DNA from: Norana najaformis
Lineage: Eukaryota > Annelida > Clitellata > Crassiclitellata > Hormogastridae
DNA: 64,000 nt
Reading direction: 5' to 3'
NCBI GenBank assembly: GCA_964023275.1
Contig: OZ029917.1
Location: 18,602,787 to 18,666,786 of the forward strand
In this document: in pieces, positions 1,635 through 54,852 of the stretch
Position numbering within the stretch: position 1 is the first letter of the stretch
Layout: each line of letters begins with the position of its first letter
Position numbers and translations under genes: made by a program
Notes under the pieces: generated by a model
What the model was told of the DNA's origin: nothing
Databases searched by the model: none
Seen by the model: the letters and a program-made list of their open reading frames with translations, nothing else

Positions 1635-2393
1635 ATGCTGTATTCTGAGACAGTTGGAAAAGAACCACGGAAGATAGAACAGGATCCGAAGTGTAACAGT
1701 GTCTTCCACTGCAACAAGACAAATGCAAAGATGTCGCAGTCCACAGCACCTCAGCACCAGCCAGATGAAGCTCCGACAGTACTTGGTCCAGCCATTGTTG
1801 TCAGTAATCATGGCAGTTTTCCCAACGATGTGCGTTGCAACCACATGATTTCTGTGACGAGTGACCGAACTGGATTGTGGAAGTTGGAGGCTTCTGGGGT
1901 GGAAGAACCTCCGGCCCAGAAAGTGCTACATCAACTCCAGGAACAGGTGAGCTGTTACAGGAGCCAGCTGCGTCAGCTTTGCCAACAGGATGGGATAGAT
2001 AGACGATCTGGAGTGGAAAGGTTTGGTTCAGGAGCAGAAATTTCCAAGCGTAGTTCCACAGGAATGCTTCCGGGTGGATTTACGTTGTCGTCGTACACTG
2101 GAGAGGACGGTGCAGTCTTTGGACGCCGGTATTCAGTTGGACAGACACTTCCACAGAGGCTACCCTCGCAGAGATGTGGAGGGCAATGGCCTCGGCCTCT
2201 TGAGTCTGAGTCGCTGCCATCGCTAGTGGCAAAAGTCTGGGACAGGGGAGTCTGTGAGCACAACTGTGTCCTGAAACAGCTGGATAGTCTGGTGCAACGT
2301 CAGCAACAGCAGCTGCTGGAAGCACAGATGAGGCATCCGCTTGACGTGGCAATGCTGGAAAAGATCTACTGGGAACAGAAGAAAATCACCAGG
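1635..2393 (+). CDS. DMD: dystrophin exon 1 (isoform-specific first coding exon)
   Basis: This 253-codon open exon starts at the first ATG after an in-frame TAA at 1623-1625 and ends ACC AGG|GTGAGA in phase 0. That fits the phase-0 acceptor at 26983. The sequence matches no domain I know. It contains two glutamine/leucine-rich helical stretches, about residues 92-120 ([19 protein letters not shown]) and 212-253 ([31 protein letters not shown]), with a Ser/Gly/Arg-rich low-complexity middle. It occupies the place of the tiny first exon of vertebrate Dp116. The 5' UTR boundary is not known. Frame openness over 759 nt and the consensus donor support a real exon; the joining exon is inferred. Confidence 0.7.
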
Positions 2394-5300
2394 GTGAGAC
2401 ATCGTTTATCAGATATTTATGTATAAAGGCTTCTTCTGTTTATCTACATGCACATGTATGAAAGTATCCATACAAGATACTGTTTAAATGCCTTTTTCCA
2501 AATACATCTGGGACAGCTGGTTGCCTCTGCAGTCAAATCTCTGGGGTTTTGACGCAGTTTTTATGATGCTAGTGTTACTGCCAACCTGTAGTGGCTCCAA
2601 CGTTGTTCTTGCTTCTGTAGGTTGCATTATAGTAGTTATTATACAACAATGAATGTGAGTGCTTTTCATGCATTCATGTAGTTATCAAAAAGGGTTATCC
2701 AAATTGTGCCCGATTTTAAATTTATTTTGGTTTAAATTTAAAATCTGGTTTTCATTAATTTTCTTAAACTTGATTTGAAGTTTGGCTTTACTGCTAAATT
2801 ATCAGTGAATTTGGAAGTCAGTGTGAAATGTGCAAACAATTGCTTAGAATGATAAAGAATACTTATCAGAAATATGCCAAAACTGTTTAAAATGAGTGGC
2901 CTTAGCACAAAATGAATTTCTGTAATACAGCCTAAAATAAGTAAGTTAAACAAATATCACAGATGGGTACGAAAAAGTATTTGAAATTGGTTTGATGCTT
3001 GTTAGGTAAACTGTATGCAAAGTTGGTAGGAAAGTAAGAAAATTCTGCCTGTCGTGCCATGAATGGTCTGATTTTCAAAAAGATGAGTGCAGTTTTAAAT
3101 TTGTATCAACTGAATTTAATAACCATGCCTTGCATCTGGTCGGTCGGGCAATCGATTAGAAGAATGCTCTTCGGACTCATTCTACATGGCTCGCTGGCAA
3201 ATAGTTCCCGTCCGATAAGCCAATTGGCAAACGCTAACATCGTCTGAGAACGTCTTGAAGTTCGGTAAGGCCGACCGTCTAAGCCACAAAGCTTTCATCC
3301 TGTATGGCAAATAGGCCGTCCATTGGTCGGTCGGGGAGACCGGACAATCCTCGGGGTAACATCAGATGCACGCTGTCTGAATTTAACGACCATCGATCTG
3401 CCGTGTCGGAAGTAACAATGCCGAGAGTTTCACCGTGGTCATTTGTTTCTGAATCCGATCCCGACTCTAAGTCAAGCAGCTTCTTTGGAGTCGTGGATAA
3501 GAGCAACTTCTGGCAACCGAGTGGATTGGCTGGGCCATGCAGTTCCTTCTGTGGCATGTTGGCTGCGTGGTAATGCTGTATGAGCTTTCCTCACTTTATC
3601 TTCAGTTTGAGTCCTGATGTGTCTCAAAAGGCTGGAAATGCCTCGTCAGCATCTTGCTCCTTTCTGGAGTCTCAGCTCTGTGCTTCACGTTCTTTTTACT
3701 GTAAATGGTGTTGCACATGTGTGCTGGATTCCTCGACATTGCTTTCAGCATCACTGGAGAATGTTAAATTTCTTTCTGTGAAATGACTTTACTAAATGAA
3801 AGTTTCATATGGTTTCATATATAGGTTAATTATGGTGATTGCCTGCAGAGATAAAGGCCCGTGCCATAATATATACTGATATGCTGCCGTTGCCCTTCCA
3901 GACGCAGCTCTGTCATTAGAGGAGCTTTGACGTTTGCATTTACTGGAGAAATCCAGTTTGGCATTTGGATCCATGATCAATCACTCGAGTTATGATCGTG
4001 TCGTTAGAGCACCTAGGCAGAAAGCTGGATCTTGTGGACACTTCTTATTTTGGGGTTTGTCTCCAGTTGTTAGTGGGCGGCCATCTCTACCACGTATACT
4101 AGATTGTCTTGTCTTGTGCACCTAGACAGATTGGTGCTTTTGGAATTGATTTGGGAAATGCAGTTTCACCTTTGCCAGTGTGATTATTATTTTTGACAAT
4201 TGTGGCTGTGCGTAACTATTGTTATTTTTGTATTGTTGTTGTTATTAGCATGATGCTGTTACAGCTGTTACTTTTTATTACAGTTAGATTGTTTCAGTTC
4301 AGGTTTTAATAATTGGCTTTAGGATTTTAAAAAATCAGGCCACCTATGTATTTTTTGTATGTGCTGCAACATGCTTGTAAAGGAAATTGGGGAAGTGAAA
4401 GAAAATTGATACATGTTTCGTTGTTTTATTATGTTGCAACTCACTTTCTTATTCACAAATTTCTACGTCAGTAGAAGAGACGAGAAGATCTCGTCTTTCA
4501 CTGTTTTTGGATGTCTGTTAAGTCTACCATGTATATGAAGAATTCAATGTTTGGTAGGAGGCCAGTTTGCTAGACTGATAAAATATGTTTAGTGATTTAT
4601 GTGGCTTTAATGTGAAGACCTAGAACTCATTGTCACGAGTTTAGTACCAGCAGAACTATTTCTCTAAGTGATCACATGTTCCATTTAAAAAGATGTTGAA
4701 ATGGTTCCCAGCAGGAGTAGCATAATCTACGAGTTCTTTCACCCATAGTCAGTTCCTTAATTAGCACATCTTTAATGTCTCGCATCGCAGCTGCCTCGTC
4801 TTAAAGTTTGTGTCATCCATGATTTGTAGCCATCTAATTTGCATCTCCCTTGATTGAAATGGAGAGAGTTAGTAAGTGATAAAAACGGAAGTGCTTGTTT
4901 CAGCCCCCACTTGGGAAAGACAGATTGTAACAGACGAAGAATGTATATGGCAGGTCATCTAGTAAAGTGCTGAACCGAATTCTATGAATGTCCATAACAG
5001 ATCCTTTCCCTTTCGGCAGAATGAAACTTTTGTAGCCGTGTCATCGTCTGATTTATGTCATTCGTTCATTCGTTTCTTCATTCATTCGGCTGCTGAAGGT
5101 GATTTTCAATTGCTGTTTGGAAATTTCGTCTGTGTAATCCCTTGGTCATAAAGTTGTCCCGTCTGGTGGGTCGTAGCACCGTTGTTGTTGCCGTCTTAGG
5201 GCGTTCTCGCAGCGTGAAAGCGTCTGACTTATGATGCAGCTAATTGAGCGTGCGTGTATGCTCGAGTCTGTCACTGGACGAAAGCGTGGCATCACTTTGC

Positions 5301-8300
5301 ACGCCAGTGCACGGTGAAATTATCTGTGGGTGGTTTGCAGTGCTTTTGTGTAGCATGGTGGAGCCAGCCGCTTACTTGGAAATGCTTCTTAATATCTGTC
5401 ACTTCTCGCCGTTTGCCAGATCAATTGTCGATGGTCGTTCAGCAGCTCTAGCGTTGCAATTGAGCCTTGTTGTTGGGACTGTGCGTAAGTCCTAGGAATT
5501 TGCCGTCATTCTGAGAAGTACACCACACGCAAATAAACACACAAACACATCCACATACATACATACATATGTCATATACAGTACATCCACACATGTGCTT
5601 ATGTGCGTTTGAATGTGTACATTCAAATGCTCCCAAGAAAACTTCTTCTTGGTTCATATGCTGTCGTATAAAATTTGTGATTTCCTGGTCATGATTGAAT
5701 CTGGTGCAATCCAAATAATGATTTTCTTCAGCCACCTTATGTGGACCTACATTGGGCTCCTAGCTGACTACAATTTACCATCAGTGATCCCAGCTAACAT
5801 GGCTCTCTGGACTGATTGTTGAATTGCGGTTTTCATGTCTACTCTTTCATCATAAATATATCATTAGTCATGGACCGCAACTGTGGGGAGTAGTAAGTTT
5901 GATCTGAGTAGAGCTGACTTTACAATTTACATATCAGTTTAACTTATATTATTCAAATAATAAGGCATACATTTTATCCTTGTTTGTAGGCTACATACGA
6001 ATTGCGTTCTGTGGTCACTTCTCAGTTTTTTGTGCTTTGACCTCTGAACTTCTGCTATATTTATTTCCTTGAAGATATTGCAGTGGACTTATCAGGTGTC
6101 AAATAAGGACACCATACAGGCACAGTACAGCAACCCACACTGATGCCATAAAAACCCTGTAATTACCTGTATGGTGGTGGTTCTTGCTCTTGTATTATTA
6201 TGTGCCCTTGATGATGGGCATTTCCTTACCATTTTGGGCACTGAAGACTGTTGTGATCACAGATATCTTACTTAGCAAGTACCATGGTCATATTAAGATT
6301 GAACTGTAGGAGGCATATATAATGTCCTGCCATTTTGTCATTGCTAAGAAAAAGGTTTTGCTGAAGCATGCACCTTCTTCATGTCCTGCTGATTCAGTTC
6401 ACAGAGGGGCCATACTTATCTTTACCGATTTTTTCTTGTTTTGAGTTTATTAACAGAAATATTGTGTCTTTTTACTTCTGCTTTATTTCTTAGTGCCCGA
6501 CTTTTTGTCTGTTTTTAGTTTCCCAGAGTTTTATGGTCTTTTCTAAATCCCCTGTATTTTGTCATGATCTTTTAAATTTTTCATTGTTACTTTTTACTTT
6601 ACAAGTTTAATAGGCAAACTAACCTTAACCAGTTTGAAGACAGCTTAAGTGCTTTTGAGAGGTACTCAAAAGGTGCTATACTAAGTTTCTTGATACTAAG
6701 TTTCTTGATAGCTCAGAGGTGTGACCTCATATCAAATGAAGGCATTGATTGCAGGTTTAGAAGGCAACCTTCACCCTAAGCAGTTTGGGGTACATCACTG
6801 GCCTGCCTTCTCCAAATCAAATCAGCACATGGCCAGATTGCTGCTTTGGATCTGCCCTTGATGTCCTGCCAATTTCTGTTCACTTAGAGAATTTTGCTGA
6901 AACAGTTACGAGTGCTTATGTACTTATGTACTTGACATGGCATCTTTGGACAAACCCACAGACTTGATGCAGTGGTCATGAATAAGCTGATGCCCTGAGC
7001 TTAGCTTAGAAATTTCGAGTCTACGATTGCGATTATACACCTGTTATTTTATGAACATGATAAAATTTTAAACACTGTTTGTTTTAACAGTGTGCCCTTG
7101 TATGCATATATGTATCTGAGCATTTATATAGTGCCTTTTGGCTCCTCTTAAAGGCCCTGTGATCATGGCTGTCTAAGAGACCTAATCAGATGCGTCTCAA
7201 GATAGGAAGAGAATGTGACTTGAGCTGAATTAGTCAAAATAGTATTTGTGCTCAGAGGAAGACCTTTACAAGATGATGGGCCAACATAAGAGATTGTGCT
7301 GGTGCTGACATACAGAAGCGAGGGACCAGTCACATGTAGCGAAGGGTGCCCCTAATGACTCGAAACCGGTGTGAGCGGCTCACATATATGAATTTGCATC
7401 TCTAGAAGCATTAAGCACAATGTTATGCATATTATACTCAGCTACACGTATGAGCAGCCTGTGAACACTGATAGCACTGCTGAAATGATCAAGAGGACAA
7501 TAGTCAGCAGAGGCAGATACAATACCGAAGTTGTACAGATCAATGGTGAGGCCACATCTGGAATGTTGTATTCAGGTATGGAATCCGTAGCTGAAACATG
7601 ACATAGTTCCAAACCACTGGAGAAAACACAAAGGAGAACTACCAAAATGATTTGGGGTTACAGGGATCTGAGCTACAAAGAAAGGTTGAAAAGGCGTGGG
7701 GGCTAACAGCATTGGAGAGAAGGAAAAGCAAAGGAAATCTAATTGAAGCTTATTAGATTATCACTGGAAGGGAGGAAGTGCAGTGGGGGAGGTTCCTTGA
7801 TTTAGCACCAAACCACACAGCTTTAGGCCACATATATAAATTATTTAAGAAACCAAAAGGAAGATTAGGGCCGAAAGTCTTCAGTCCAAGAGTTGCAGTG
7901 GTTCTAACGCAGACTGCATGTCATCTGAACCACTTAAAACTCTTGTTATGCTATGTTGAAGATATGCTCTCCATTAGTTGGTTCCAGTTTCCTAATTATT
8001 CTTCCTGCTTCCACTTTGCATGGAACCCTTGTTATTAATCTGTGCAAAACACAACTTAATTTAGTGTTACAATTACACTTTGGTGTGGTCTAAATTTTGC
8101 TTGAATCTCTATGATTGAAAACTGTTTATGTTTTTATCTCCCTCCTTGCTTACCCTCATGAGCTGGTTGTTTACTTGGCAGCTTTTGTTTTCTTCCTCTT
8201 GCCAAGACACAACTGCCAGCAAAAATGAGCTAGCTCTATTATGTGGGCATCCCTGAGTAATATTTGCATCTAACTTGGCACGTGTCCACTGTCATTACTA

Positions 8301-11300
8301 CTAGTTTACGGCGTTGACCCCTAGTGCGGTGGAAAGATTTCTGCCATGGGCAACTCTGCCGGCTTCTTTCTTTGCAGCTGCTTCTTTTAGGATAATTAAA
8401 TCAGAATGCGTCTGGGTCGAGAGCCATTGAAACAGAGAAATGGATGAAGGCGCAGATTCAAAGTGAGTGTCTTCCTGAAACCTTCTATGGATCACTCCTT
8501 GCCGTATTGCCTTATGGGTAGCCATGATGTCCAATGCCATATCTGATTCTGGTTTCAGATGGTGACATCAGCTATAGGGTCAACTCATAGGTTGCATAGC
8601 CGTTCCTGGGCCAGATTAGTGGCAGCTTCTGGGTTAGGTCAAGAACTGAATGGCATTGTTAGAGTAGGAAAAGGGTTCCATTGGAAAATCTTTCCATATT
8701 GTTAATGTTTGATGTGTACAATGCTAGCAGGTGTGTGCAGTGAAGTTAAACATCAAGAACCTAGTTAGTAACTGTCGAATGACCTTCCTTGGAATGCCAG
8801 GCTGCATGGTGCCCATGACTAAGTCCTTCATTCTTTCATGGTTGATAATTAAGTGACTACCTAGTGGGGAGTTTTAAAATGGAATCCTGGGCTGCCAACC
8901 TTTGATTCTGGCAATCCAGGATGCCCGCATAGTCACTTGATATGCAAGTACCAATTTACCCTGTCCATATCACTGTATGTAATGAATTTTGCATCAGCCT
9001 AATGTAGGATCTACTGCGAATAATCGTTAAAAATTACAGTCAAATGATTTGACTCAAATCATCAAGAGACAAGTGGCCTATATATAAAATTTGAATCAAC
9101 TTCAAAAGCAAAACTTTTATTAAATTCCAGTAACCTACCAGGCTTCAGGGCCTAGCACGAGCGAAGTTCACGTATACATGCATGACGCATGCAATTTGCA
9201 GATGTCATTTATTGGGTCTACTAACCTAACTACCCTCTATCCTATGGTCACTGTGTAAAACTTATTTATGGCTGGCTGTTCAAGTATAGTGTGTGAAAAG
9301 AACAACATTTGGCGAAGTGGATATTTACACCAAGTTCTGGGACAATTTGGGATCAGTCTGGGACACGGAACACACAAGGCCGATTCTGGGATTGTCCAGG
9401 TGAATCTGGGATGGTTAGCAGCCCTCCTGTCACCCAAAAGATCCTTTGGGCTTGGGCCACACTTCTGCCTGAAGTATTTGTATAGAGGCATACAAACAAG
9501 TGTACTGCATTTACTTTTTTACATTAATCACTGTAATTACTTAATTATTGTAGCATACTTACATATACATATGTTTCAAGACACTTAGTATAGCACTTTT
9601 TAAGTACCTCTTAGAAGTGCTGCACACATACAGTATGTGTATGGATGTATGTGTGTATGGATGTATGTGTGTATGGATGTATGTGTGTATGTATGTATGT
9701 GTGTATGGATGTATGTGTCTAACTGATCAAAGCAAATCTTGTAGAAGGAAAGTTGGAATTGGGTCAGTTGTGCTTGATTTTGACAGAGAAATACGTACAT
9801 ACATACAGTGCATACATACAAACATACATACAAACATACATACATGGATCGTTGCATTCCTCTGATGCTGGCGTGTTGCTAGAACCGAGAGGTTGAGGAC
9901 AAATGTAGGATCACAGGCTTTCAGCTGCTGTTCTCCTCATATTTGGAATCATCTACCACAATAGGTTGGACTTGCTAAATTGCTTTCATCATTTAAATCA
10001 CTTGTGAAGAGTCACTGTTTTACTCAGGCTTTTGCATAACTCCTTCTTGGACCCCTAGCAAACATGCATCCATGCCTGTGATTATTCAGAATTACTGACC
10101 TTGCATGCATCGTAAGGGCTTTTAATAAATAATGAATAAATATATAATATATACGTACATACACACACATACATCTACACGTACATATGTACATACATAC
10201 ATACATGCATGCATAGATAAACATGAATGAATGCAGGAATTCCTGTTTCTCTGCCCCTCTCTTTTCCGCAGGCGTTTGAAGACCTTGTTATTCCCCATTA
10301 GTTCTGGGACATCAGGCCAGGAGCGCCTCTGACGAGTTTTATCTTGAAGTGGCACTTGATAAGTTTCTGATTAATTACATGTGTGTATGGTTGTTTGAAT
10401 TAAGGGTTTATTTGCAAATCGAAACTGTAAAGATTAGTTTAACTTGAATTTAGTTGACATCTTTCTTCTTTAGTTGCAGTTTTGCAGCATTTAAATGTTA
10501 TCCATTAGTTGTTTGAGATGAAGATGGATCCAACATTTTGCAGCTATATTCTTGTGAATGCTGACCTGGTTAGCTACATGTGTACGTCATGGCGCCTCTG
10601 GGCATAAAGATGTGGGTTCTTGTCCCGTCATGACTGATTTCAGAGATCTGAATCTTGGGCTAGCATGGTCTGCACACAGAGACCTTAAATGGTGTGGTGC
10701 CCATTCAAATGGGCAGAGGTGGTGAAGAATCTCACCCGATTAAATCATTGAAAAATGAGCAGGGTCGAGGACAAACAGCGTCTACAGAAAAACATTTGCA
10801 TTTGCATTTGTGAATCTGTATCATATTTAATCAGACAGAATGGCAAGGCTTGCACAGCATGAGTCATGTTTCTCGTCATTCTGTTTTTCGATGCATAGGT
10901 AGAGTGTTTGCTGATTTCCTGTCAGGTTTCCTGTCCTATAAATAGCCTGTTGGAACACAATACGATGGAAATAACTATCTGTGGTGAGACATGTTAGTGG
11001 AGATGCCAGAATATATGCTGCAAGGTCTAAAGAGCAGATGCTGTTCTGATTGTATTAACTTTCAGTGCTGCCTAATCTAAACACGTCATAATGAGCATGC
11101 TTTCTGGTAATTTTGGTTGTGTAGCAGTCTGAGGCTGCTAAAGATGTATTAGTCAGCTAAATGCTGATGAAGTAGAGACGAATAGAAACTATGACATTTT
11201 TACAGCGAGGAAGAGCTATGGTGCCTGCAGGACTTGCGTAGGTCCCTACCCTGTAAATGTCTCAGCAGCCGGAGGCTGTTAAAATCTGCACACTCCCCAT

Positions 11301-12246
11301 TATGCAGTTACAATCATTATAGTTTGTAATGTAAAGAAGGGGCTAATTTAATTACCCTTAAAAATCTGGAGGGATACTTTTTATCACTATTGAATTTGAC
11401 TGGAAAGCAATAAAGTAAAAGTTAGTCTTCATACACTTTTAAGGAGAAATTAACACTTAACCTTAAGCAGTGATATAGTAAGTGTTGCTGAGCGCTGACT
11501 TGATAATAATTTGGCAGCCACACTAGACCTATAGGATATGAGGGTTTAGACTGCATGTTGAAACACGGAATAGTAGTAATGTGAAAGTGTATCTACTGAC
11601 AGTGCAACAATAGGTGAGTTACAAATATTCCACTGCATTACTGCTGGAAGATTACTTTGCTAATGTTGATCAGCTGCTAACTGACAGAGCTTCTAATTAT
11701 CTTTGTTTCAGTAGTATTCTTAAGTTGCCAATTGTTCTCACGTTCTAAAACTGTTTTGCCATATTGCCTATCTGTTGCCATTTTATATCACCTTACATTT
11801 ATTATATTTTTCTGGCATTAATCTTTTTACTGGTAAACTGTGCTTTCTTTTGTTTCTTTTTTAGCAATAATCTTTGTCATTGGCCCAGTATAGTCACTTT
11901 TTCATAGCTGGGCAAATCTCACCATTAATTGGAAGTGCAAGAGACCTGAAAAGTTGGTTGGAGAGCGTAATCCGAAGTTTGATTAAGGGTCCAGATGATT
12001 TGGCGTGACTGATTGGTTGTTTTGCGAGATAGCCGCTTGCTTGAAGACTGCATTCATTATGCAAAGCCTTGATGAGTTGCCTTCTAATTAGATGATCAGT
12101 GCTCTGCCAGTATTCTGACATCCACATCACGGCTCGCTAGGCAAGCGGTTCCATCAGACGAAAGCTGAATTAACCCATTACAAAGAGCATCTCTGCTTTC
12201 TGGTAACTAAAGTGGAATTGCATTTTCCTCCACGGCTGAATGACTT

Positions 12247-12280
<34 letters not shown>

Positions 12281-15200
12281 GAGAGAGAGAGAGAGAGAGA
12301 GGCTTGGAGTGAAGCACATTTGTTGCCTGTTTACATCTATTTGTGAAATTTCAACTGTTATGGCTGCGGTTGAAATGAAGTTCTTCCTGGTCTAATAATT
12401 TAGCGCATGAATACAGATTTTAGTGACCCTGCACATAGAGGGGTTTGTCTGCTGAAATGAGCTGTGGGTTGTCATCAATATGCAAATACGCTGTAAACTT
12501 GGGCTCAGTTTCAAGAAAATTCATAAGGATTGGTGTAGTTGTACCACCAGTCACCTCTGCTAATACCAACATTAATCAGCTGCCTATTCTGACAGAAGTT
12601 TCACTACAATTCTTTGTTTCCTTTAGAGGTGTGAGGGATGTATGAGGTGTAGGTTATACAAGAACGTACAGAAACCAGGGGGGTGTTGGCTTACATGTGA
12701 AAATATGTTTTTTTATTGACCTTGACTGCTGTAAAATCCTGCTAAACGAATCTTGCTTTCTGAAGCCAGACTGTATGTTTTGGCTTGAGATCATGCACTT
12801 CCATGTAGCATGTCATCTGTTGCCCTATTATTTTTCAAAAGCCTTAAGAAGGTTTGTGATTACTGATGTCATTGCAGTCCCATCCATGCTTCTTGAATAA
12901 TGGCCAAGCTTTTGAGGAGTTAAAGAGCATATTGCAAACTACAGATCTATTGCTTTGTCATGCTTTCTGATTGCCTGCTGTGATGTACTTTTAAGGATAC
13001 ATGCCCATCTAATTTCTTACCAGCCTAAATTTTAGAGCTCTAACAAAGATGCAAGTTCCTTTTTCCTGAGTTTATTGCTGCTTATGCAGAGAAGGGTACT
13101 GGTGATAGGGTTGTGGTGATAGCGAATAAATTGACTGATGAAGTATTGGACTAGTGATCGATGATGATGTGAATAATCATGATGATAATGGGATGATAAA
13201 ATCAAGAAGAAAAATCTAATTAATATGTTGGGAGAAAGATGGGAAAATAGGAAGAAGATATAGAATGAGAAAGTAGATGAAGTTCAGGTTGACAAAGGAG
13301 TCATTATACAATTGTCTCCAAAGTTTGTAGCATGAAAAATGCACAAAAACACATGAACTGTCCAGTACTTCCAAATGCCATAATCTGATAATTGAATGTA
13401 TTTTGAATCTGCATTCCTTTATTATCTTTACTCTCTTTGCATATTTTCAGATATCCAACCTGCAATCAGCACCATTTTATTTTGCATTTCTGTGTCGGCA
13501 AGCAAGTATTGCTTTTCGAATTCAGTGGCAGTTGCAGTCTGTGCTATTGCTGATGCATGCGACCAGGTTATCACCACTTGCCTTTTCAGTCAGGCGTTGA
13601 GCCTCCTCCACCAAAAGCCCGAGGAGATGACATTTTCAATCTCGCTCCGGAATAATCAATTTAAGTCGCCTTGCAAACTAGCCGTGTTGGCAGAGATGTA
13701 GCAAAGATATGATCAATAAATGACTTGGCAAAGTGTGCAGAGGAAGCCGAGTCCTGTAACTTGCCATGGTGAGCGCAGATCAGTTTTACTTCTGCAAGCA
13801 ATGAGCAAGGGTTTCATTTGTGAGCATCGACAGTGTTGTTTGAGCGATGTAATTGTACAGCTCTCATTGGTTGTTTTCCTCTGTTCAATCTGCTACAATC
13901 CCTAATAAATGCATACTATGAATGTTTTGTCTCAACCTTGTAATTATGAAAAGTGATGGTGGATGGATGCTGCTGGTGATACTTCTCATTCAGTGGATCT
14001 TCATAATAATAATAAGAAAAAAATTAACATGCAAGGTGCCAAACTTGAAACAGAGGCAACCACATTAATTAATTAATTGCTTAACTAATTTTGCTTACTT
14101 CTTAAATAATTTTTGTAATTATCTGCTTTATTAGCCTTTCAATATGGGAATGCTTGCAGCTACTATACTGATCTTTTGCAACAGTTTAAACAAATTTATT
14201 TTCTGTCTTTCTGATATTTCCAGTTACTCCTCAGCTTGAATTTAGAGATTTGATGAGCTGTTTTTAATAGTTTATTAATTTAAGTTCTACACTTTAACTA
14301 CTAAAAGTGAGTTTTGGAAATTATCGACCACTTTTGATTATTCCATATACTCAAAGCCAGCCTTGGTAAGGCATTTCAGTATGTAGTTTCAGTTAGTTAA
14401 GCCTGTAACTGTGCAGTGCACCTAAATAATGGCATGCCCACTTGGTCATGATGTCTTAAAATGTTTTAGTGGCATAGGGGGCTGTTTTATGAAATGTGAA
14501 TGCATGGTGTGGGACTGTTTAGGATTTCTAACAGTAAACTTTTTGACAGGCTGCTATCTCAAATAATAATAAAATAATAATAATAATAATGATAATGATA
14601 ATAATAATAAATAACAATAATTATTATATATTATATAATAATAATTATTATTATTATTATAAAATTAATAATAATAATCTGAGAAATTCTATAACATCAC
14701 GGTATTGATGCTCAAGGCATCAATTGATGTTTGCTACTGAAGCAAAATCATTGTGCTAGCCAAAGAAGGAACACACAGAAGCAGCCTGTGGAGGAAATGA
14801 GTCCAGGAAGAGATGAGTTTTTAGTCAAGATCTGAAGGCCAAAGCAGACTTTTTGACAGGCTGATATTTCAAAATGTTAGCTCACAAAATATCAGTCATC
14901 TTCACTTAGAGTTGACATTTTTTTATGGCGCGGCTGACAGCATCGTTGACAAGGACATCTTGTCTTCCATTCAGAAAGGGTTGTCAGTTGAAGGAAACTG
15001 TGGCCTCTGATAATAGAACAAAATTTTATTTTCATATCATGATTTGGAATTTAGAATTTCACAACTTTCTTGATTGTTGCACAATCTGTCTGTAGGTAAC
15101 AATCACTGGTTATGGATATTATCACTATGCGTTTGCCATTATGTTGTCTGATTTCCCAGACAGCACTGGCTGGTATTATAAAGAGATTTTAAAGTAGGTT

Positions 15201-18200: not shown

Positions 18201-21200
18201 AAGAAAAATAGCTGGTGAAATATATGGCCAGTCACAAGATCTAGCAAAAGGCTTCACGAGATGGTCAGATCAGTCATGATACTGTCTTGGGAAAAATAAT
18301 CAGAACTTTATGAATTAGAGGAAGGTACAATAATTACTATCAACTGACCTGGCCAATCAGAGCATACCCAGTCATGAATTTACTGGCTAACCTGACCTAT
18401 TGTAAAAAACTGATTAGAATATTTTTTTGAAAATCTAAATAATCAAATGATCATGGAAGAACAGGTGAAATCATGTAAGATAACAAAAGCTATGATCTGA
18501 CCAATCAGAAAATCCAGCTGTGCGCCAAGGTATGGCCAGGCCAGTGGTTAAGGCCATCAAAAGAGGCAACGAAATGCATTTTTAAGGGTCTGGCCAATCA
18601 GAGAAGCGCTTCCAATAATGTGCGGAGAAAATGCAAAAGCCATTTTAATTGCGTTGCACTGGCGGTGGCGTCGTTTGCTGCCATAAATTCTCGTGCCATA
18701 AATTATCAATCGTCATGGAGCATCCGTGCTTCTGCAGTATTGATGCAGACATTGACCCGTGCACAAAGAAGCCCTGCGTCGTAGCCGGAGGTGCTCCAGC
18801 GGTGGCGGTGCTGACAGAAGTCACGCGAGCCGGCTGGGTATAGATGCCTTGACACAGCCACTTGACCTTACTGAAGATTCCATCTGAAGAGACTGCTGCT
18901 GTGGAGGAAAAAGAACCAGATATATCGGTGAGCTTTTCCTTGTGACAGGAAAATTTTACCTGAACAGACATTAACGTTTGACTTGTCTGAGTGAGGAAGT
19001 ATTTATTGCAATTGCATGTGCTCATTACTTACCTGTTTGTTTACCTGCTTGTTTACCTGTTCAGCACCTGTTTCTCTTCTCGAATGTTACTTGTTTCTTT
19101 TTCAAGACGTAACTGCAGGTTCGTATACTGGTCGCTTTCATGTCATTGTTACCTATTGTTTTGTGCTTAGATTGAAAGGTTGGGAGTTTTCCATGATTAG
19201 TGTTTTGGCCATTTTCAGCTGCAAATTAATCTACTGTGTTTAACAGTATGGTATTCTGTGGTTTCAAGATGCAATGCATGCAGACTTGTGACCAACAAAG
19301 AATCAGTACACTGGGCGAATAAAGAAGGCTGATGATAATAAGCTGCTTGTCAGTGTTTGTGTTTTATAAAAGGTTGCCGTATACACAGTGGCTTTGAAAT
19401 GGTATTAAAATGTACTAAATAAATTCATCTATTCATACAGACCATTTATTTGGTGCCCTCACTGAACTTAGAGCTGTGGTGATGCAGTAGCAGTAGCAGC
19501 AGTAGTCAGATGTGGTGCACCAGGATGCGATGCTCAGCTTACTGAATGTCAGCTACGGCAGTCTGGCTTTGTATCATTAATCCTTGAAGCATCCTATGTA
19601 TAAGGTGGAACTAAGGTGTCTGATTATCTGGTGATCTCAACTGTTTTTTCTGCCTTTGAAATGTTTGCATCATAGAGCCATGCTGTAGTGGTTGAACCCA
19701 AGCAGAAGTGGCATACATTATTCATGGTACCATGATTGGCTGGCAGGAGGTTAATCTATAAGGTTCTTGTCATTTTGTCATGAATCAAAAATAACTCGGA
19801 GACCAGCAATGTAGCTATGGTTATTGCAGGGGTTGTGTTGACAATATCATCCTAAGGGCAATCCAAGTTTTCCAGTTACAGTTGTGAGTGAGGACCTGGA
19901 TGGGGTCTGCTAAGGGTCGTGAGGACATGGTAAAATGCCCTGCTCATAAACTACATTGTTTTACATTACGTTGCATTATGTCACATGTGAGAGTAACCAG
20001 GTCATGGTAAAAGATGTCTTCATACATCACATCAGATTATGTTGTGCAACTTTGAGCTATTGTAAGAGGGCATTATTAAATCAGTGGCATTATATTGTGT
20101 TGCATGTTACATTCCATTCCATTAAATTACAGGTCTTTCACTCAAAATTGAAAGCACTCCTCTCTTCCACAAATCCTAATCGAATTGCTCCTCTTCCCTT
20201 TCTTTATCTTGTCACTCCATTTCCAAGCACCATCCACCATAGCCATCTGACCATCTGCCTGCCTGATCCTGGATCTTGACCTGGAACAGAATCTGATCCT
20301 TTCTGCCTATCAATTTTGTTTTGACTGAGCACCTGCGAATGAGCTGGTTCCTGCCACTAGGCTTTTGTTGGGTTCTATAGAAATCTTAAGTTTACGTTTG
20401 TGATTATGATTACGATATGAAACCACAAGCTGAACTTCAGCCATCAAAAACTGTACGATAATCTTGGAATTGCAGTCTTGTTAACCTTGGGAAAATGTGA
20501 TCAAGGGATGTAAAAGTTGAGAGTTGAAATGAAGTGATGATACTTCTGAATGCTATGTGCATGAAATACTTATTAAAATGTGCATGCGTGAGGCACAAAT
20601 ATCCCAGACTGTGGTGCGCATGCAAATCACAAATCAGAATGGTTGTGATAAAGGCTACCAGTTGATGCACACGTACTGTGAACAAATGCATGCACATTTT
20701 AACATATAAGGATATAATAAATAAATAAAATTTTGTTGCAGGTAAACTTTAACTAGAATGGTTTTGGTTTATTTAGGTCGTGAGTGCCTCTGGTGAAAAG
20801 GCACTGTACAAATTCATGATTTTATTTACAGTTATAATTACAAGTTGGAAACACTGGTTAACCCAATGTTTCCAGCCCGTTGTCGTAATTCTTCTTCTGT
20901 TTATAAATTGAGGTGTTCTACGATGACGGCCTTTCATCACTGATGTCTACCACTGATGATGAAAGTGCATAGAAATGCAGCGGTTTTCGTGCCTTATTTC
21001 ACAGAAACTTTTTTAGAGTAATGCTATTAGAGTAACATCTGCATCATCTGTCACAGATGGCAGCATGAATAAATATCTGGCAAAGGCTTTAGATGGCAAT
21101 ACGGATCCAATTTATGGGCACATATCATCTGATCATGCATATCTGTAGAGAATGCGGGATAGCGTATTTGTAGAGAATGCGGGATAGAGAATGTGTCTGG

Positions 21201-22904
21201 ATGAATTATTCTCGATTGTAGATTGGAGTGCAGTGTTTGTGCTGCGCTTGCTATAGGTTGCCATCTTTGTTCCCTCAAAATTTGATTACAGGAATGGGAA
21301 TCTTGTTTGTTTCCGGTAATTTCATGTGTCCGACGCTTGGTTGTGTTCGGTGGCCTTTTCCTAGGTGGTCCTATGCCATTCAATTGGCCGATAGAAAACC
21401 TTTTGGGTATTGGAGCAGATTTGTCAAATTCTTCTGCTGATAACTTGCTCTTTTAAAGCTTGAAACAGGAAACAGGCGACTGTGGTTATTAATTTGATCA
21501 AATTGGTGGGGAGAGTAACCATGTGTGGTTGACTTGCGAGAGGACGCTGTGACCCTGTTCCGAACTACCAGATGCCACAATTCATAAATGGTAATGAAAG
21601 GACTGTCTGCTGCTGTGGTGGCAGTTTGAAGTTGATGTCCACTGATTTGTACAAAGGTCAGGTTACAGTGACTGATGAATTACTCGTAATCGTAAACTCA
21701 AGATTTCTATTGCACCCAACAAAACTAAGTCATGAGAACCAGCTTATTCACAGGTGCTCCGTAAAAACAAAATCATTAGGCAGGAGGGTCATTAACCGTT
21801 CCAGGTTAAGATCCAAGAGTCAGTCAGGCAGGCAGGCAGGCAGGCAGACAGGCAGATAGCAGGAAGTATGTAGCCTTTAATTGCAGCTCCTTAAACTGGC
21901 CTTAATATGTGCCCAACTGTATGTATCGATATGGTTACTGAATAGAACAGAGCCTAGATGATGCACCTCCATGATCCTGAGAGCCTGACAGATGTACAGT
22001 GTGCAGACCTATCAGTTGCTGGGAAAATTAGAAGTCAGAAACTGATTTCTTGCTTTCCATACCGCATTAATATATATATATATACACATATGTATATACA
22101 CACACATTTATATACATACATATATGTACACGTGTATATACATAATGGCATTTTTCCTTTAGACATTTCTTGTATTTCACAGATTTAATCTCAGGCAAAT
22201 ACTTTGCAGGTTCTTCAGTCCATGGCAAATACGTCTTTAATCAGTGAGATTTACTTCGATCAAATTGGCTTAATTCCTGATATATGCTTTCTTCCAGTCC
22301 AGCATTTTGTCATTCATATTTAGCCCTGTAGATTAAGTCGCATCTGTGTGTAGGTTTACTTCGTCTCTGACAGACTTAGATGTAGACTGGTATCTAAATA
22401 GTCTCTCATTGTTTTTAGATCTCTGCAATTTTGTGTTTATTATTAGTCTTTGCTATTTCTGTTTCTTCTTCTGTTCTCATTTTCTGCCTTTTCTATGATT
22501 TGAATTTTATTTAAGGTTCTCCATATCTTTCTCACTATGAACTTCTGTTGTAGGTAAGGTTAGTAGCTAATTGCTGATTTCTGACAAGCAATCCTCAGAG
22601 TGATTATTAATCGTAGTCATTGTAATTGTCATCACTGCAGTCATCATCGTCATAATCATCATTAATAATAATATTATTATTATCAATATAAATATTATTG
22701 CATTTATTATTTTATTCCCAGGGGTGTTGAAAAATTCTTCTTATTCTTGTGCTGTTTCTTGCTGTTGTTCATATAATTTTTTGTCTTGGGTACCCATGAT
22801 CCCTTGGGACTTATAAAAAAGGCTCCCTAAAAATAAAATGTCTGGGTTGGCTAAATATAAATATTATTATTGTTGTTGTTGTTGTTTTGTTGTTGTTGTT
22901 GTTG

Positions 22905-22962
<58 letters not shown>

Positions 22963-25900
22963 GGGAATTTATCAAGTTCATATGTGTGAGAACATGGAGA
23001 AAAGTTTTCTTAAAGTAAATTTTTACCAAAATGTTGAGGTCTAGGGTTGAAGCTTCCTTCTTGTCTTGTTGTTGTATGTTGGTTAGTCTGAGTTGGCTGA
23101 TAATTTTTAGTGTTTTTAGTGCACTTGGTGTTTTCAGTTCCTTGTATCTAGGCATTCAGTAAAAATTTAAATGTGTTTGTTCAGTTCCACAAGTTCTGTG
23201 TTTTTGCTGCAGTTCTCTAGATTTTCTTAAGCTCCTGGCTTTTAGCAGAATGGCAGTATGAAGTCTTTACTCCGGATGTTTGAGTGTTGGGTCTGGCCAT
23301 GGATACTGAAGCTTCCAGTCATCAGTTGCTCAGAGAGAGGAAGTTACATGAAAAGCATTTTAAGATATTTGCCCGTGCAGAAATTTGCTTTGCTTAGCTT
23401 CGATGCAGCACTTGAAGCATACCCGTAGATATAGTACAAGCATTGTAAATTTATTTCTTATCTGGCCTGTCTCCTGCACTTGTGATTTTTGAGGGATTTT
23501 GCTATTTTTGTTTAATGCCAGTCTTTCTCATTTCCATGAAGTGTTTTATCTGTGAAGCTGTGACCCTAATCATATGGGTTACACACACCTTTGCAAAACT
23601 TCTCAAAATTGTGGTCTCAGAGTTGAAGCATCATTTGGCTGAGAGTTAATCATAGCCACTCAAACTCCTAACTTGCACTGGTGCTGAATATCGGCTACTA
23701 AAGAATGGAGGGCTGAGTGTGCGCCAGGTACCGTGTTTTTCAATTGGAAAATTACTCAAGTACAAACTTAGCTCGATTTGACTTAATTTCACTGCACCTG
23801 CCCGCATCTTATCAACAAAACCAAACGGATTGGATTTTTGTGGCACTATTCAAGAGAAACTCCTTATCTAAGAACACAAAACCACAACCTAACATAGTAA
23901 GTGTTTTTAATTACTGACACGTCAGCAATTAAAATTAAATTTTAATCGAAGGCCGTGAAGCTTATGTCACAGATTGCTAGGCAAATGCGGCACTTATCAA
24001 CCTGTGGCATGAACTGACAGTGAACTTTGATATATTTTGATTACTTCTAGTTAAATTTATGATTGTTTCTTCTTTTACAAAAACTCTGTTCAGAGATGGT
24101 GTTTATAAAAATCTGATTGGGGGTTATTAATTAGCACACCAATAATTGTTTTCATGCTCTACTATTTATTATTTCAAATAAAATGTGCAAAATGCCTGAA
24201 GACTGTACCATTTTCAGAATGCTTTTAATTTTCAAATGTTTATTTCTGCAAACTACATAGAGATGTTTGTTGTTTTTTCAAATGTTTATTGCTGCAAACT
24301 ACATGGAGATGATTGGTTGTTTTGTTCTTGGTATTTTGTAATTTATTATGAAATACTATATAGGAAATCTTTAAAACTTGCCAGTAGGCCTACATCTGCA
24401 TTAATGAGATTTTTAATTGAGATTTTTAAAATACACTAGCTAAGAGGTCATAGCTTCCTATTTGTTATCAAATGTGAAGTTTATTATGAATCCATATTTA
24501 TCATTTGATCTGTATTAAGTGGTTGGCTAAAGTGTACATAGTTAGTATAATGCTTTAGTGTAGTATATATGTGTGTGTGTGCATAAAAAACAACATTTAT
24601 GTAGATAGATATATTAAATAAGTTTATGCCAGCATAATGGGCATAATAATTGGTAATTATTAGTCTATGGGGAACTGCTGAACACTATACTCTGGATTAG
24701 ACCAAGAGCAGGGATCCAGGAGTGGAAATTTAAACTCAACAGTTGAATGCCATTATTTTTGGTAATGAGCAGACGACTTTTATGCTTGTGCAGCCAAGCA
24801 CAATGCTTAATCTTCAGTTGTGCAGAAATCGTCGATGGAGGTATGCGTATAACTGGTGAACTCTGACAACTCCGAATCGGGGCTGTTCGACAAGTGGATG
24901 ATTCAAAAGGCGTATTATTGTACAAGTCATGTATTAGTTTGTGTGAAGTTCATTTGTGGATTGTGAAAATCCTTTAGCGAGGAACTAGCTTCCAGTGACA
25001 TTCTACGCAGAAGTGCGTTAAGTTCAAGTGACATATATCCTCGAATCTACTTCTACGATCGACACCACGTTGGACAAAGATTCAAGGTAGCTGGCGTGGG
25101 GTGAGTTAGGAAGAGATCATGTTCGGCTGTGGCAGCACTGATGTGTAAGTCAGACCTTCTCGTACGGCACTGCTGTTTTGACGGATTTCTTCATGAGCAA
25201 AAGAAGTGACTATCTATTAATGAAAAGAGTCGTCATTCATACACCTACCAAGACAGAAAGAGCCGAGTTCAAGCGTGCATGCCAACAAGGGAGGTTTATT
25301 AACTATGTAATATTAAGATAACTTAGAAACAATTATGGCCTAGGTAAGTAGGCTTTATTTTATGGTGCGTTGAAAGTGTTATGGTCTATTGATCTTACTG
25401 ACTGATTGAACTGTGGTTTGACTATCATTAAACATGCATAGTTTATTTTTTAAAACTGAAGGACCTAGCCTTGTGGTGACCCATTTATAAGTATACACTA
25501 TTCTCTACATTGATCATCTTCTATACATATAAAGAGTAATGGCTAGAAGATCAACTGGTGGTAACGTTACAATGACATTTCTGCACCGGTGTGTGCAGTG
25601 CATGTGCAAAAGCCAACGCTCATGTCGATTTTCACCACCACAGCTGTGGAAAATGATGGGATTTATGGAAATCGGATTATTTAAAGCAACGCCTATACAG
25701 AACGTTTATGTAGATTTCGTTACAGAACAGTGGAATATAGGTAAAAGAGGCATTTTTAAGATGCTCCAGGAAACGACCATGCAGCCTTTTGTAGCCTAAG
25801 AGATGTGCATTGGAAAAAATTAACCCGGATCATATGTATTTTTACTGGAAGTTGCAAAAATGGGTCGTACATTATGAAACCCTGAAAAGGATGGAGGGAG

Positions 25901-28900
25901 GGGTCACCCAAATGCAGACAGTGGGAGGGGGTTATGCCAATGTGGACTTCAATTTCTTGGTACATACTGTTATTTCAGTACAGCCTGTGCTTTTACACTA
26001 ACTTTGGCCAGACAACGGTCCATACTGCATTGATCTAAATTATTAGAGTTCCAGTGCTGGATGCAGCAGTATCAAACTACCCCACTCCTTAGCACAGCTA
26101 GCAATGCAAGATCAACAGGAAGTCAAAACCATAGGCCTTGGTGCTCTTTGGTGTATTGCCAAATACCAGTATGGACAAATGCGGACAAGGAGAGGGAGGG
26201 TCCAAAGTAGGTCATTTTTGCAGAAGTCCTGTGTGGGCGATCCCAAAGATGAACTAGAGACAGTCTTAATACAAGTTTAACTTGTCCTTATAGGTTTTTC
26301 ATTTTAAACAATGCAATTTTGTAGCCATTTAGTTTAGGCCCAATAGATATGCATTGTTACATGAACCAGGGCAAAGGTTCTAAATTGTTACTGACCAGTA
26401 GGCCAGTGTGCGCATGGTGAAAAAATTTAGAGAGGACATTGTTTAGAACATTTCTGTAGAAGCAAGTAATATGTGGAAAATGATTTATATGTTTATTTGT
26501 TTTGAATATTTCGTGAATAACTTTGAAAAGAATGAGCTTGCTACCTAGTCACGCACATTTCATTTGCACATTTCTACGTCTTCATGCACTGATATTTCTA
26601 CAAGAAACTTGATGTCAGTCTCCATCTGGCCATTCTGTGTCCCTATGTATGGTTCTTCCAAGGATCCATGCTTGCCAGCTGAGGCGTGTAAATACAGTAA
26701 TAAGTCAATACCATTCACGCAGAATTCGCTTTCATTGCTTTGGTCTCGTAATGCCGTTGGCAACACTCGCTTCGAGTCTTCCATTTGACGTGGACTCGCA
26801 TGTTAAGCTTGCGTCATCAAGGACGTAAGGGGATGACTGCAAGTTGAAGGAAAATTCATGGACAGAATGTGACTGCACCAAAATAACATTGGTAATCAGC
26901 TTTGAAGGATGCGTTGGACTTCACAGCCAGTGATTGCAACAAACATTTGAATACTGAAGCTGACAGTTTTGACATATTGCAGGACCTAGAGGCAGAAATC
27001 GAAGTGCATCAGAATGCTAATGACATGCCATCCCTTCTACCTGCTGGACAAGTTATCACAGGTGAATCAAAGGCTTCAGAGACGGAACTAGTGCGCAGAA
27101 AGCTTGATGAGATGAACAGACGCTGGCTTCAGCTGGAACACAAGCCATCTGGAAACAGGTAGAGAAGATTAATTATTTATCTGTTGCTTGACTGAATATT
27201 TTGCTCTCTAATTCTGCCTAGTGGACTAATAATTTTTGGACACAGATCAGAGTGTTTCATTTTATAAGCTATCAGTAACTGACTGTCAGTGGCTTATCAA
27301 GCATCGTGAGGCAAATGGATCAAACTATGCTGTCGGTGCTGTGGCACTTCCCCTGCAGTTTCTTTTGTCTTCTTTGTCAGTGATTAATTGTTATGTGTGA
27401 TCCAAGTTGAAACACTCCAAACACTTCAAACACTCCAAGGCTAACTGTTACAAACACCCCATTCTCTGTCATTTGCCCTCAGTCAATTTAATAAGCGATG
27501 TTTGTGACGGGGTGGGCACATGCAGACTTACCAATTTATTGGTAGTTTGTCCACTCACAAATTATGATTTGTTAAATGGATTATAGCAGGAAGTGTCCAG
27601 TTCTAGGCAGTTTTATGTTAGCCTGAATGACACTGACTTGATTATATGACTCAGCAATTACTTACTTAGTACATAGTCCTGCCTCTGCATATCAAGCTTC
27701 TCTGTTCGTCTCTGTTCTTTGCCAGTCCCATTGGCTTATATCCAGCCAGTTCTTTCTTGATCTTTCCCTTTTTCTTTTCCCATCAGGGATTCAGTTCAGT
27801 GTTTGGTTGACTCTTTTATAGTAAAATTTAGTCCATCAACTTCAGTCTGCTTTTCTGATAAAATTTATTATTTCTTCTTGTCCTCTTTCTCTCACTTTCC
27901 CTCTACCTCTCCCTCTACCTCCCATCTCTTTCTTTCTCTTATTATTGTTTTATTTGATATTTTGTCACATCAGAAATATGTACAAGCCAGATCTCCAGGC
28001 TCTATACAGTAGAGTGCTTGATATTGCTGATTCATACAGGTTGGACTCGGAAGAAGAAAGATTAATTATTAAGCTAAGCAAATAAGATGAGCAAATGTTG
28101 TTTTTGAAGGACTCATTCCTACAGCTCACCTTAAAAGATTGCTTTTATATCTTGGGTCCAATTATCACATCCATTATCACTGTCTGTCTCACTGAAGGTT
28201 TCTTCCCTGCCAGCTTTGTGTATACCATAGTTTACCCTCAGCGTAAAAGCCATCTTACTCTCCTGAGAATCTGTCAAAGTATCACCCCATCTCTACTCTC
28301 AATTTCACCTCCAAAGTTTTTGGAAAAGGTAGTAGGTAAGCTTAACAGACTTGCCAAGCTTACCCCCCAGCCTTAAGAGGCTGCCTTTTTTCTTCTTAAA
28401 CTAAACTATGGAAGGTAAAATGATAAATGTCAATTTTATATTTTGATCATAGTGCTTGGTAGGCACAGAACTGTATGTTTGTTATCTCTTTGTGTTTTGG
28501 TGTTGTCTGTCCATCTGTCCCTCGTTGTCTGTCCCTCATTGTCTGTCCATCATTGTCTGTTCCTCATTGTCTCTGGATATACTAATGACTTTTTTTGTTC
28601 CCGATAGATTATTTGGCTGGTTTTTTCTAACAGAGGTCGTCTGGATGCCAACACTGACCATTGGAAGCAACTGCTCAAGACTTTGTGTGATTTCAATGAC
28701 TGGCTAACAAAACTTGAAGCAGAAATGCGAGCCCTGCAGCCACCTGGTGGTGACCTTGAATCATTAAAATCACAAGAAGATGACCTCCAAGTTAGTATTG
28801 TCTATTTGGCTGTCATCAGGGCATTGCATTTGGTAAAAACACTGACCTGTATTTCACTTTTTGGATGAAAACTGATATTTTGCAAGCCAAATGTTGAAAC

Positions 28901-29909
28901 TCGTATGGTGTTTACACATATAGAATTCATTACATCAACTGATGATGATCCAAAATTTTGTCAGTCAGATTTTATGCCAATAGGACAAAGAGGGCGACAA
29001 CTTCCAAGGGTAGACATACCAAGTGTGGTAACACTCTTGGTATGTCATGTCGAAGCTGTAGAGAGTTTGTTCCATGCAGCTGAAAATGTATGACTGAAAG
29101 TGCTAAACTGCAGCTGCAAAACTTTTGCATCAACCATAGTGGCACTTTCTAGCTTTTTATGGATGTTTGCAGTTTTATTTCCATTTATTTGAACCTTTCC
29201 CAGTCGTTTGAGAGAACTTGAGCCTTGATAAGTAAACATAACAGTCTTGTAGCTTGTTGATGTAGTTGACAAAGTTTATATAATACCTGCTCAGATTCTT
29301 TTTCAGTCATATTCTAAGGTCCGTGAAACACAGCTGGTCAATACAATGTTTTCTTCTCACTTGTTTTCTTCTTCATCTTTGTCATCTTTGCCATTCTTTA
29401 GCTATTGTGTAAGAAGCCCCAAAAGGGCCCAAACACCAAGAAATGCTACTGTTTTCATCTTAGACAGTCTTTACCATTTTATTCCATTTCCTCTCACTCA
29501 GCTCAGCCATATACTAATTCTCTTTGTATCTGTCTACCAAATCTCACCACTTCTCTCTGCCTTTGAAATATGTCCTGCTACACTTTAAAGCTACTTTTCA
29601 CTGCTGCTTTTAATTATGATTATGATCAGTGACTAATTTATGATCCATCAATTTAGTTTTGTGCTCTGTATCATTGAAAATGAATGGCAATAAGAATGAA
29701 TAAACTAGAATCTTTTTTGTAGGCCATGTGCTTTCAGCTGGACAAACAGCGTCAAAATCTGGAGCTAGCTCTTGAGGGAGCCGATGGTGCATTTCTCAAT
29801 GAGGAGTCAATTGATCCTAAATTTGTCAATCTGGACAATTTTGATGGTAATGTATCTTGATAGCATTTTGCTGGTGATTTCTGTGCATGAATGTGTGAGC
29901 TAGATAGTC

Positions 29910-29993
<84 letters not shown>

Positions 29994-29994
29994 C

Positions 29995-30066
<72 letters not shown>

Positions 30067-53215: not shown

Positions 53216-54852
53216 TGGAACAATCAGCAAAACAATTCGTCTGTCTTTATTTGTGATTTCTTCTTCTGAACGCAAACCAGCATATGGATGTCATTCAAAC
53301 TCTTCCAGAAATGTTGAAACATCCAGATTTTGATAAATTTATTATTGTTTAATGTAGTAGATTTCACTTTTGAAGTCCACCTAAAGTATTTTTGTTTCAT
53401 GTAAAAGTTTGTGAATGCTTTGAGGAATAAATGCATAGCTCTTTTTATGCTAAGCAAATCAACACTGGTAGCTATTCTAAACATGTGATTCTGGAGTGTG
53501 AGTTAACATGAGTGCCCTGCAAGTCCACCTATATATGTCTTCACATTTCATTCCTGTAGTTTGCAATTTTTTTTTGTATTTTGCTTTTTCGCTGCATTTA
53601 ACTTACGTGTAGTACACAGAAATTATTTTTTATGTCCTCAGTTCTGTGCTGTTGACCTCCACATCCTGGCTAACCACCTCTCTAAAACTTCCCAAGTACA
53701 CAGACAAAGGCAAAAGAAATGATGCAAGACCACAGTGTGAACGATTCATTCCAGCCATTTATGGAGCGAGTCACGTTCGGCAGGGGAGGAAACAAGACCT
53801 CTTCGGCCATCGCCCAGCGAAATTCTTGTAAAAATAAAACAAAGCTCAGAATAGGGACGTGGAATGTGAGAACAGTGCTGAGACCGGGAAGGTTAGCCAA
53901 TGTCATCAGAGAGATGAAAAGAAAAGGTTTGGATATACTGGGACTGTCAGAGGTGACATGGAAGGAGGGTGGTTAAACAAAGATATAGAAACAGTGTAAA
54001 GAACTCCAGAGTGGATGCAGATACGGATCACAACTTGGTAGCCATGATGGTTCATCTACAATTAAAATTCATCAAGGAGAAGAGGAAACAAGTGAAGAAG
54101 TGGGATCAGGAAAAATTAAAGACTAGGAGTAAAGAACTATCAGAAAAGATCCAGGAGCAGTTAGTAGAAAGAACTACAGCCACAAGAGAAGAAATATGGA
54201 GAGGACTGAAGGAGATTATTACCAAGGAAACATTAGAAACGGTGGGATATCTAAAAGGGCAATCTCCTCAAAAGCCATGGATTATGATGGAAATGCTTCA
54301 GGATACGAAAGAGAGGAGAAAATGGAAACATCAGAGTATGGAGAAAGCTAAAAAGTTATATAGGGGACTAAATACCAAACTATGAAGAACAACAGAGAAG
54401 GACAGAGAAAAGTGGTGGGAAGAACAATGTAGAGATTTGGAAGAATTACAAAAAATGGGAAGATATGATCAACTGTATGGAAAAGTGAAGACGACAAAAG
54501 GGTCAACCAGAGGAAGTGGAATAGTGGTAGAAGATGGAAGTGGAATAGTGGTAGAAGACAAGAATTCCAGGATCCTACAAGACCCCAATGATGTAAGAAG
54601 ACAGTGGAAGGAATATATAGAGGACCGCTACCTGAGCGAGAACAGACCTACGCATCTTAATCAGGACTCACCCCAGAGGATGGGGAAGAAGTAGGACCAG
54701 ATGTGCTGAACGATGAAAGATGTACTGGCAGCCATCAGCGAAATGAAAAATAACAAGCCAGGTGGAACTGACAACATCCCGGCAGAGATACTAGAAAATC
54801 TGGGAGAAAAGCAATGGCTGAACTGGTAAGGCTGTGCCAGGAAGCAATAAGT

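What the first reader, a model, noticed from the sequence alone, without database searches (positions are those of the whole stretch)
1635..27158. Dp116-like internal first exon conserved in an invertebrate dystrophin
The 253-codon exon has an in-frame stop just upstream and a phase-0 donor. The next recognisable dystrophin exon, 24.6 kb away, has a phase-0 acceptor and is the equivalent of human exon 56. In vertebrates, Dp116 arises from a promoter in intron 55 whose first exon splices to exon 56. The same promoter position here would mean that this short-isoform architecture predates vertebrates.
Basis: partly seen in the sequence, partly recalled or inferred. Interest (0 to 1): 0.75.

Follow-up and report, generated by a model that had tools for sequence, protein, structure and literature searches.

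The report
Probable short-dystrophin first exon
An invertebrate dystrophin gene carries a long open stretch that probably starts a short form of the protein at the place where other animals also start one; this is an already known kind of gene layout, although the stretch itself resembled nothing we could find.

Summary
1635-2393 is a 253-codon open stretch with an in-frame stop 9 bases upstream and a phase-0 donor. It lies 24,589 bases before the equivalent of human exon 56. I rebuilt the gene as 24 exons to a stop at 51600. Codon use, phases and the very long following intron fit a first coding exon. That it is internal, in 'intron 55', is not shown: no equivalent of exon 55 or earlier was found in the window. 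The exon's sequence is not conserved as far as tested: no match in Pfam or a capped protein search, nor to the vertebrate Dp116 or G-utrophin exons. Its end weakly resembles a long insect first exon (a profile test failed). That this promoter position predates vertebrates was printed in 2007 (PMC1790709, passages). By-product: a 17-residue first exon apparently shared by G-utrophin and snail, spider and insect dystrophins, not found here.

The parts
1635..2393 (+). candidate first coding exon A, long form, 253 codons, phase-0 donor AGG|GTGAGA
   Evidence: longest frame in the window; codon score 0.133 per codon in frame, negative in the five other frames; donor among the best 24 of 3937 GT sites by a generic matrix, 1.8 by the gene's own donor matrix (known donors 0.4 to 9.0)
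1635..1946 (+). exon A, short form, 104 codons, phase-0 donor CAG|GTGAGC
   Evidence: best of 3937 GT sites on the + strand by a generic donor matrix (frequencies recalled); 7.0 by the gene's own matrix
1947..2393 (+). 149 codons that only the long form keeps; open in frame
   Evidence: chance of staying open about 1e-4 at the intron's stop frequency; 0 of 1531 intron GT sites are followed by 149 open codons
1550..1559 (+). TATA-like run upstream of the ATG; no evidence of use
   Evidence: TATAA occurs 94 times on the + strand of the window
2394..26982 (+). 24,589-nt intron; no spectrin exon and no G-utrophin-type first exon recognised
26983..27158 (+). equivalent of human exon 56, 176 nt, phase 0 to 2
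   Evidence: E 4.7e-9
28634..28790 (+). equivalent of human exon 57, 157 nt, phase 2 to 0
   Evidence: E 2e-12
29723..51600 (+). 21 further dystrophin exons: last spectrin repeats, WW, EF hands, ZZ, coiled coils, stop TAA ending at 51600
   Evidence: splice sites placed by hand

Best explanation
Exon A (1635 to 1946 or 2393) is the first coding exon of a short dystrophin. A promoter upstream (inferred) starts a transcript whose exon A is spliced over 24.6 kb to the exon-56 equivalent (phases shown, junction inferred). The product has 1234 or 1085 residues. It lacks the actin-binding domain and most of the rod, and keeps the last spectrin repeats, WW, EF hands, ZZ and the C-terminal coiled coils. 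It would therefore dock on dystroglycan, dystrobrevin and syntrophin without the N-terminal actin link, as Dp116 and G-utrophin do (inferred from domains and from general knowledge of dystrophins). The two phase-0 donors would give two N-terminal tails. By descent the exon is lineage-specific or too diverged to place.
For: Frame length against chance; in-frame-only codon score in both halves; two phase-0 donors, ranked 1 and within 24 of 3937 by a generic matrix; in-frame stop at 1623 and weak acceptor score at 1635 (-1.7, against -0.4 to 9.2 for the gene's 23 acceptors); phase-0 acceptor at 26983 and human-like exon phases; no intervening spectrin exon recognised; this intron 24,589 nt against 21,672 nt for the other 22 together; intact downstream gene with WW, EF-hand and ZZ domains; other animals' dystrophin models with diverse unique N-termini at the same boundary.
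Against: No transcript data. No homologue of exon A found. No dystrophin exon upstream in the window, so 'internal' is untested. AGs upstream at 826 (7.7) and 935 (7.1) allow a non-coding exon before it, and AGs inside the frame (1792 at 6.0; 1961 at 6.5) leave an internal-exon reading possible (10% of intron AGs score 5.4 or more). A donor-like site after 1621, 13 bases before the ATG (95 of 3937 GT sites score as high), could bypass the ATG. The gene's own donor matrix gives 2393 only 1.8. A phase match alone is a 1-in-3 event.
Confidence: 0.68

Rival explanations
1. The gene is a short-only dystrophin (like DRP2 or the sea-squirt dystrophin) and exon A is its ordinary first exon, not an internal start in a long gene.
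For: No equivalent of exon 55 or earlier was found in 1-26982; sea-squirt dystrophin is N-terminally truncated (PMC1790709 passages).
Against: Only 1.6 kb lies upstream in the window. PMC1790709 calls a single invertebrate dystrophin gene almost universal. Gene models read into exon 56 from upstream spectrin sequence in snail, chiton, insect and echinoderm proteins.
Confidence: 0.12
2. Exon A, or part of it (for example 1792-1946), is an internal exon of a longer isoform.
For: Moderate acceptor scores at 1792 and 1961; very strong donor at 1946; the end at 1946 aligns slightly better than shuffles with long-form ends (z 1.7, fraction 0.056).
Against: The frame was not matched by the long-form profile; the codon score is positive from the ATG onwards; over 5% of intron AGs score as high as these acceptors.
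Confidence: 0.1
3. Exon A is the first exon of a different gene nested in, or upstream of, this intron, or a decayed coding remnant.
For: No homologue and no Pfam domain; 24.6 kb separates it from exon 56.
Against: Intact frame with coding-like codon use; phase match; no other frame of 150 codons or more in 2394-26982. Short exons of unknown genes were not sought.
Confidence: 0.1

Closest known systems
Dp116 (human DMD, exon S1 in intron 55) and G-utrophin/Up113
   Same: Alternative first exon joined in phase 0 to exon 56; same downstream domain set.
   Different: Human S1 lies 755 bp before exon 56 (PMC5664101 passage), here 24.6 kb; vertebrate Dp116 N-termini seen here have 10 to 26 residues against 104 or 253; no significant sequence similarity.
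Sea urchin SuDp98 and Drosophila Dp205 (PMC1790709 passages)
   Same: Isoforms said to arise within the orthologous intron of an invertebrate gene.
   Different: SuDp98 uses an internal translation start; Dp205 is larger. I did not examine a Drosophila sequence, nor establish which listed sea-urchin protein is SuDp98.
Long first exon of insect dystrophins (P0005, P0009, P0012, P0023, P0036; P0064 has only its end)
   Same: Long unique N-terminus, Ser/Pro-rich by eye, ending directly before exon 56; weak end similarity.
   Different: A profile of the whole exon does not find exon A.
17-residue first exon MIxLNFxLxxLLxxFEx of G-utrophin, snails, spider, butterflies and a scale insect
   Same: Same exon-56 boundary.
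   Different: Not found in the window's intron; exon A's ends do not match it.

Membership tests
[quoted passage not shown]
   no exon 55 equivalent found in 1-26982; upstream sequence outside the window not available (genome search did not complete)
Dp116-class short dystrophin (first exon in intron 55) | first exon joins exon 56 in phase 0 | tested here: met
   phases and reading frame fit from both donors; the junction itself is not observed
Dp116-class short dystrophin (first exon in intron 55) | own promoter and transcript | not testable with these tools
   no RNA or chromatin data
vertebrate Dp116 / G-utrophin first exon by descent | recognisable first-exon sequence | tested here: not met
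   donors 1946 and 2393 rank 126 and 131 of 653 for the 17-residue motif; against Dp116 ends z 1.5 (1946) and 0.4 (2393), against the 17-residue kind 1.3 and 0.4
insect long first exon | sequence similarity of the exon | tested here: inconclusive
   negative (117 of 898 scored shuffles as good); positive at the end only (22 of 5000 shuffles, 8 of 5000 random segments), after 8 comparisons
dystrophin (the gene) | spectrin, WW, EF-hand, ZZ order and human-like exon phases | tested here: met
   the Spectrin hit is below Pfam's cut-off (25.6 against 29.9 bits)

The most novel reading that the evidence does not exclude
Exon A is a strongly diverged copy of one ancestral long first exon also kept in insects, with an alternative donor that makes two N-terminal tails. 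Protostome dystrophins would then descend from a gene that already had this promoter and its own coding exon. Together with the 17-residue G-utrophin-type exon shared by vertebrates, snails, spider and insects, this would mean that at least one first exon, not merely a promoter position, is as old as the bilaterian ancestor.
Probability: 0.25. Interest if true: 0.55.

Novelty: new member of a known kind. Interest (0 to 1): 0.35.

Why it matters
If transcribed, it adds a long-branched invertebrate, probably protostome, case of a short dystrophin starting before exon 56. It also separates two questions: the age of the promoter position, which is already in print, and the age of the first exon's sequence, which is not recognisable here but appears conserved for the G-utrophin-type exon.

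Tried and rejected
Homologues of exon A: Pfam; protein database, region 1-253 of the 1234-aa model (744 candidates, none with E up to 1; the search only reaches proteins sharing exact 5-residue words and 0.55 to 1.75 times the length); phmmer and BLASTP against the 121 retrieved dystrophin-family proteins (best phmmer E 2; BLASTP printed no line). Whole-exon profile of the insect long exon: no signal. G-utrophin-type exon in the window's intron: a candidate ending at 20587 is no better than chance, 35% of 40 simulated sequences reach its score; rejected. Exon-55-like exons in 1-26982: none recognised. AlphaFold of exon A without an alignment: mean pLDDT 36.8, not used. Placing the organism: in a tree of 29 rows the window is a long branch (0.57) in an unresolved, weakly supported (68/75) group of protostome rows, midpoint-rooted; nearest by path is an annelid. 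Region search from a snail short form: 7 proteins of 12 candidates, one of them new (P0122, its N-terminus not inspected by eye). tRNA and Rfam scans: nothing. The promoter scan is for bacterial promoters and was disregarded.

Limits: the 8 sequences behind the 17-residue motif were picked by eye from the 120 proteins listed after seeing the motif; splice boundaries in those species are inferred from alignment to exon 56, not read from genomes. One search lists the best 120 of 1122; only those whose match reaches the exon-56 region could be compared (the output was cut and filled in P0038-P0068). Human exon numbers, lengths and generic splice frequencies are recalled.

Full report
Observation. 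The frame 1626-2426 is stop-free for 266 codons, the longest in the window. It starts with ATG 1635 after TAA 1623-1625 and has GTGAGA after 2393 in phase 0. Sixty simulated 64-kb sequences gave longest frames of 163 codons on average and 227 at most. Codon use, scored with the gene's other exons against intron triplets, is positive only in this frame: 0.133 per codon, against -0.05 to -0.16 in the five others. Both halves are positive: 0.193 for 1635-1946 and 0.091 for 1947-2393. The 23 other exons, each scored with itself left out, range from -0.26 to 0.56.

The gene. The frame stays open for 1234 residues. The part from exon 56 on carries EF hands (1.2e-35, 2.1e-33), ZZ (7e-17), WW (1e-7) and a sub-threshold spectrin repeat. 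Over residues 590-900 it is 67% identical to an annelid protein and up to 68% to insect ones; the protein with the best E-value, a bat dystrophin, is 49% identical over 93%. Exon 56 and 57 equivalents have human-like phases and lengths (human lengths recalled). In a tree of 29 rows the window is a long branch among protostome rows with weak support (68/75), so 'lophotrochozoan' is plausible but not shown.

First exon or internal exon. The AG at the ATG scores -1.7 with a matrix from the gene's 23 acceptors (their range -0.4 to 9.2). Better AGs lie inside the frame (1792 at 6.0, 1961 at 6.5), at scores that over 5% of intron AGs reach. Upstream AGs at 826 (7.7) and 935 (7.1) could take a non-coding exon, so exon A is best called the first coding exon. 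A donor-like site after 1621 lies just before the ATG. The intron to exon 56 is 24,589 nt; the other 22 introns sum to 21,672 nt, median 766. [quoted passage not shown] that paper itself not seen). A profile of the region upstream of exon 56 from 15 proteins finds no exon in 1-26982 (best E 1, at 15246-15380), while the matching downstream profile finds exons 56 and 57. So no recognisable rod exon separates exon A from exon 56; whether rod exons lie further upstream cannot be seen.

Second donor. Inside exon A, CAG|GTGAGC after 1946 is also in phase 0. It is the single best of 3937 GT sites on the + strand by a generic matrix; 2393 is among the best 24. With the matrix of this gene's own donors it scores 7.0 and 2393 scores 1.8 (22 known donors 0.4 to 9.0). 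The 149 codons between the two donors stay open: chance about 1e-4, and 0 of 1531 intron GT sites do so. Alternative 5' splice sites giving 104- or 253-residue N-termini are the simplest reading; neither junction has been observed.

Conservation. Exon A has no Pfam hit and no relative with E up to 1 among 744 candidates of the protein database. That database does hold dystrophins: 1122 with E up to 0.001 for the WW-EF-ZZ part. Among those of the best 120 whose match reaches exon 56, unique N-termini directly before it fall into several kinds: vertebrate Dp116 (MLHRKTYHVK and variants), a 17-residue kind, a long insect kind, and singletons in sea urchin, nemertean and lancelet models. The 17-residue kind aligns without gaps to the boundary in 8 sequences picked by eye: 2 utrophins, 2 snails, 1 spider, 2 butterflies, 1 scale insect. 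In the 23 between-group pairs, 0 to 0.7% of 20,000 random segments reach the observed score. Left-out scores are 8.4 (spider) to 41.1 bits. In the window, 653 open donors in 1-26982 reach at most 6.2 bits, and that one is low complexity. The next, ending at 20587, is within chance: 35% of 40 simulations reach it. The two exon A donors rank 126 and 131.

Weak link to insects. The last 45 residues at 2393 score above shuffles against the ends of the long insect exon. In one search the z was 3.3, the best of 8 comparisons made there. In one search, with one more target, 22 of 5000 shuffles and 8 of 5000 random dystrophin-family segments did as well. The whole-exon profile test is negative: 117 of 898 scored shuffles are as good. 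I hold this as a lead only.

Known. [quoted passage not shown] So the evolutionary claim of the finding is not new. For the 17-residue exon shared with protostomes I found no statement in print: searches of the open-access library (listings), and passages only of PMC1790709, PMC5664101 and PMC10293626. Subscription papers are not covered.

Noticed in passing
P0013, P0021, P0047, P0055, P0057, P0062, P0067, P0076 (N-termini; not in the window): A 17-residue first exon ending directly before exon 56 (MIxLNFxLxxLLxxFEx) appears shared by vertebrate G-utrophin and snail, spider, butterfly and scale-insect dystrophins.
   Followed up: partly
50433-50681: The exon 76 equivalent can be read through its donor (50610) into an in-frame stop, giving an alternative C-terminus ([23 protein letters not shown]).
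   Followed up: no
46275-46777: The gene model has no counterpart of human exons 71-73 (numbering recalled): the exon 70 equivalent joins the exon 74 equivalent in matching phase 2. Exons there were not searched for.
   Followed up: no
30730-32861: Human exon 59 (recalled) corresponds to two exons here, 155 and 132 nt, split by an 1845-nt intron.
   Followed up: no
51458-51600: The last exon encodes [24 protein letters not shown], by eye like the C-termini of an annelid (P0003) and an insect (P0037) dystrophin printed and unlike the recalled human end.
   Followed up: no
31040-32200, 53690-56000: Decayed retroelement-like frames on the + strand, judged by eye; 55661-55960 has a sub-threshold reverse-transcriptase hit (E 0.049).
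   Followed up: partly
60719-61012 (-): Open frame on the other strand with a coiled-coil stretch; only weak, unspecific Pfam matches below their cut-offs.
   Followed up: partly
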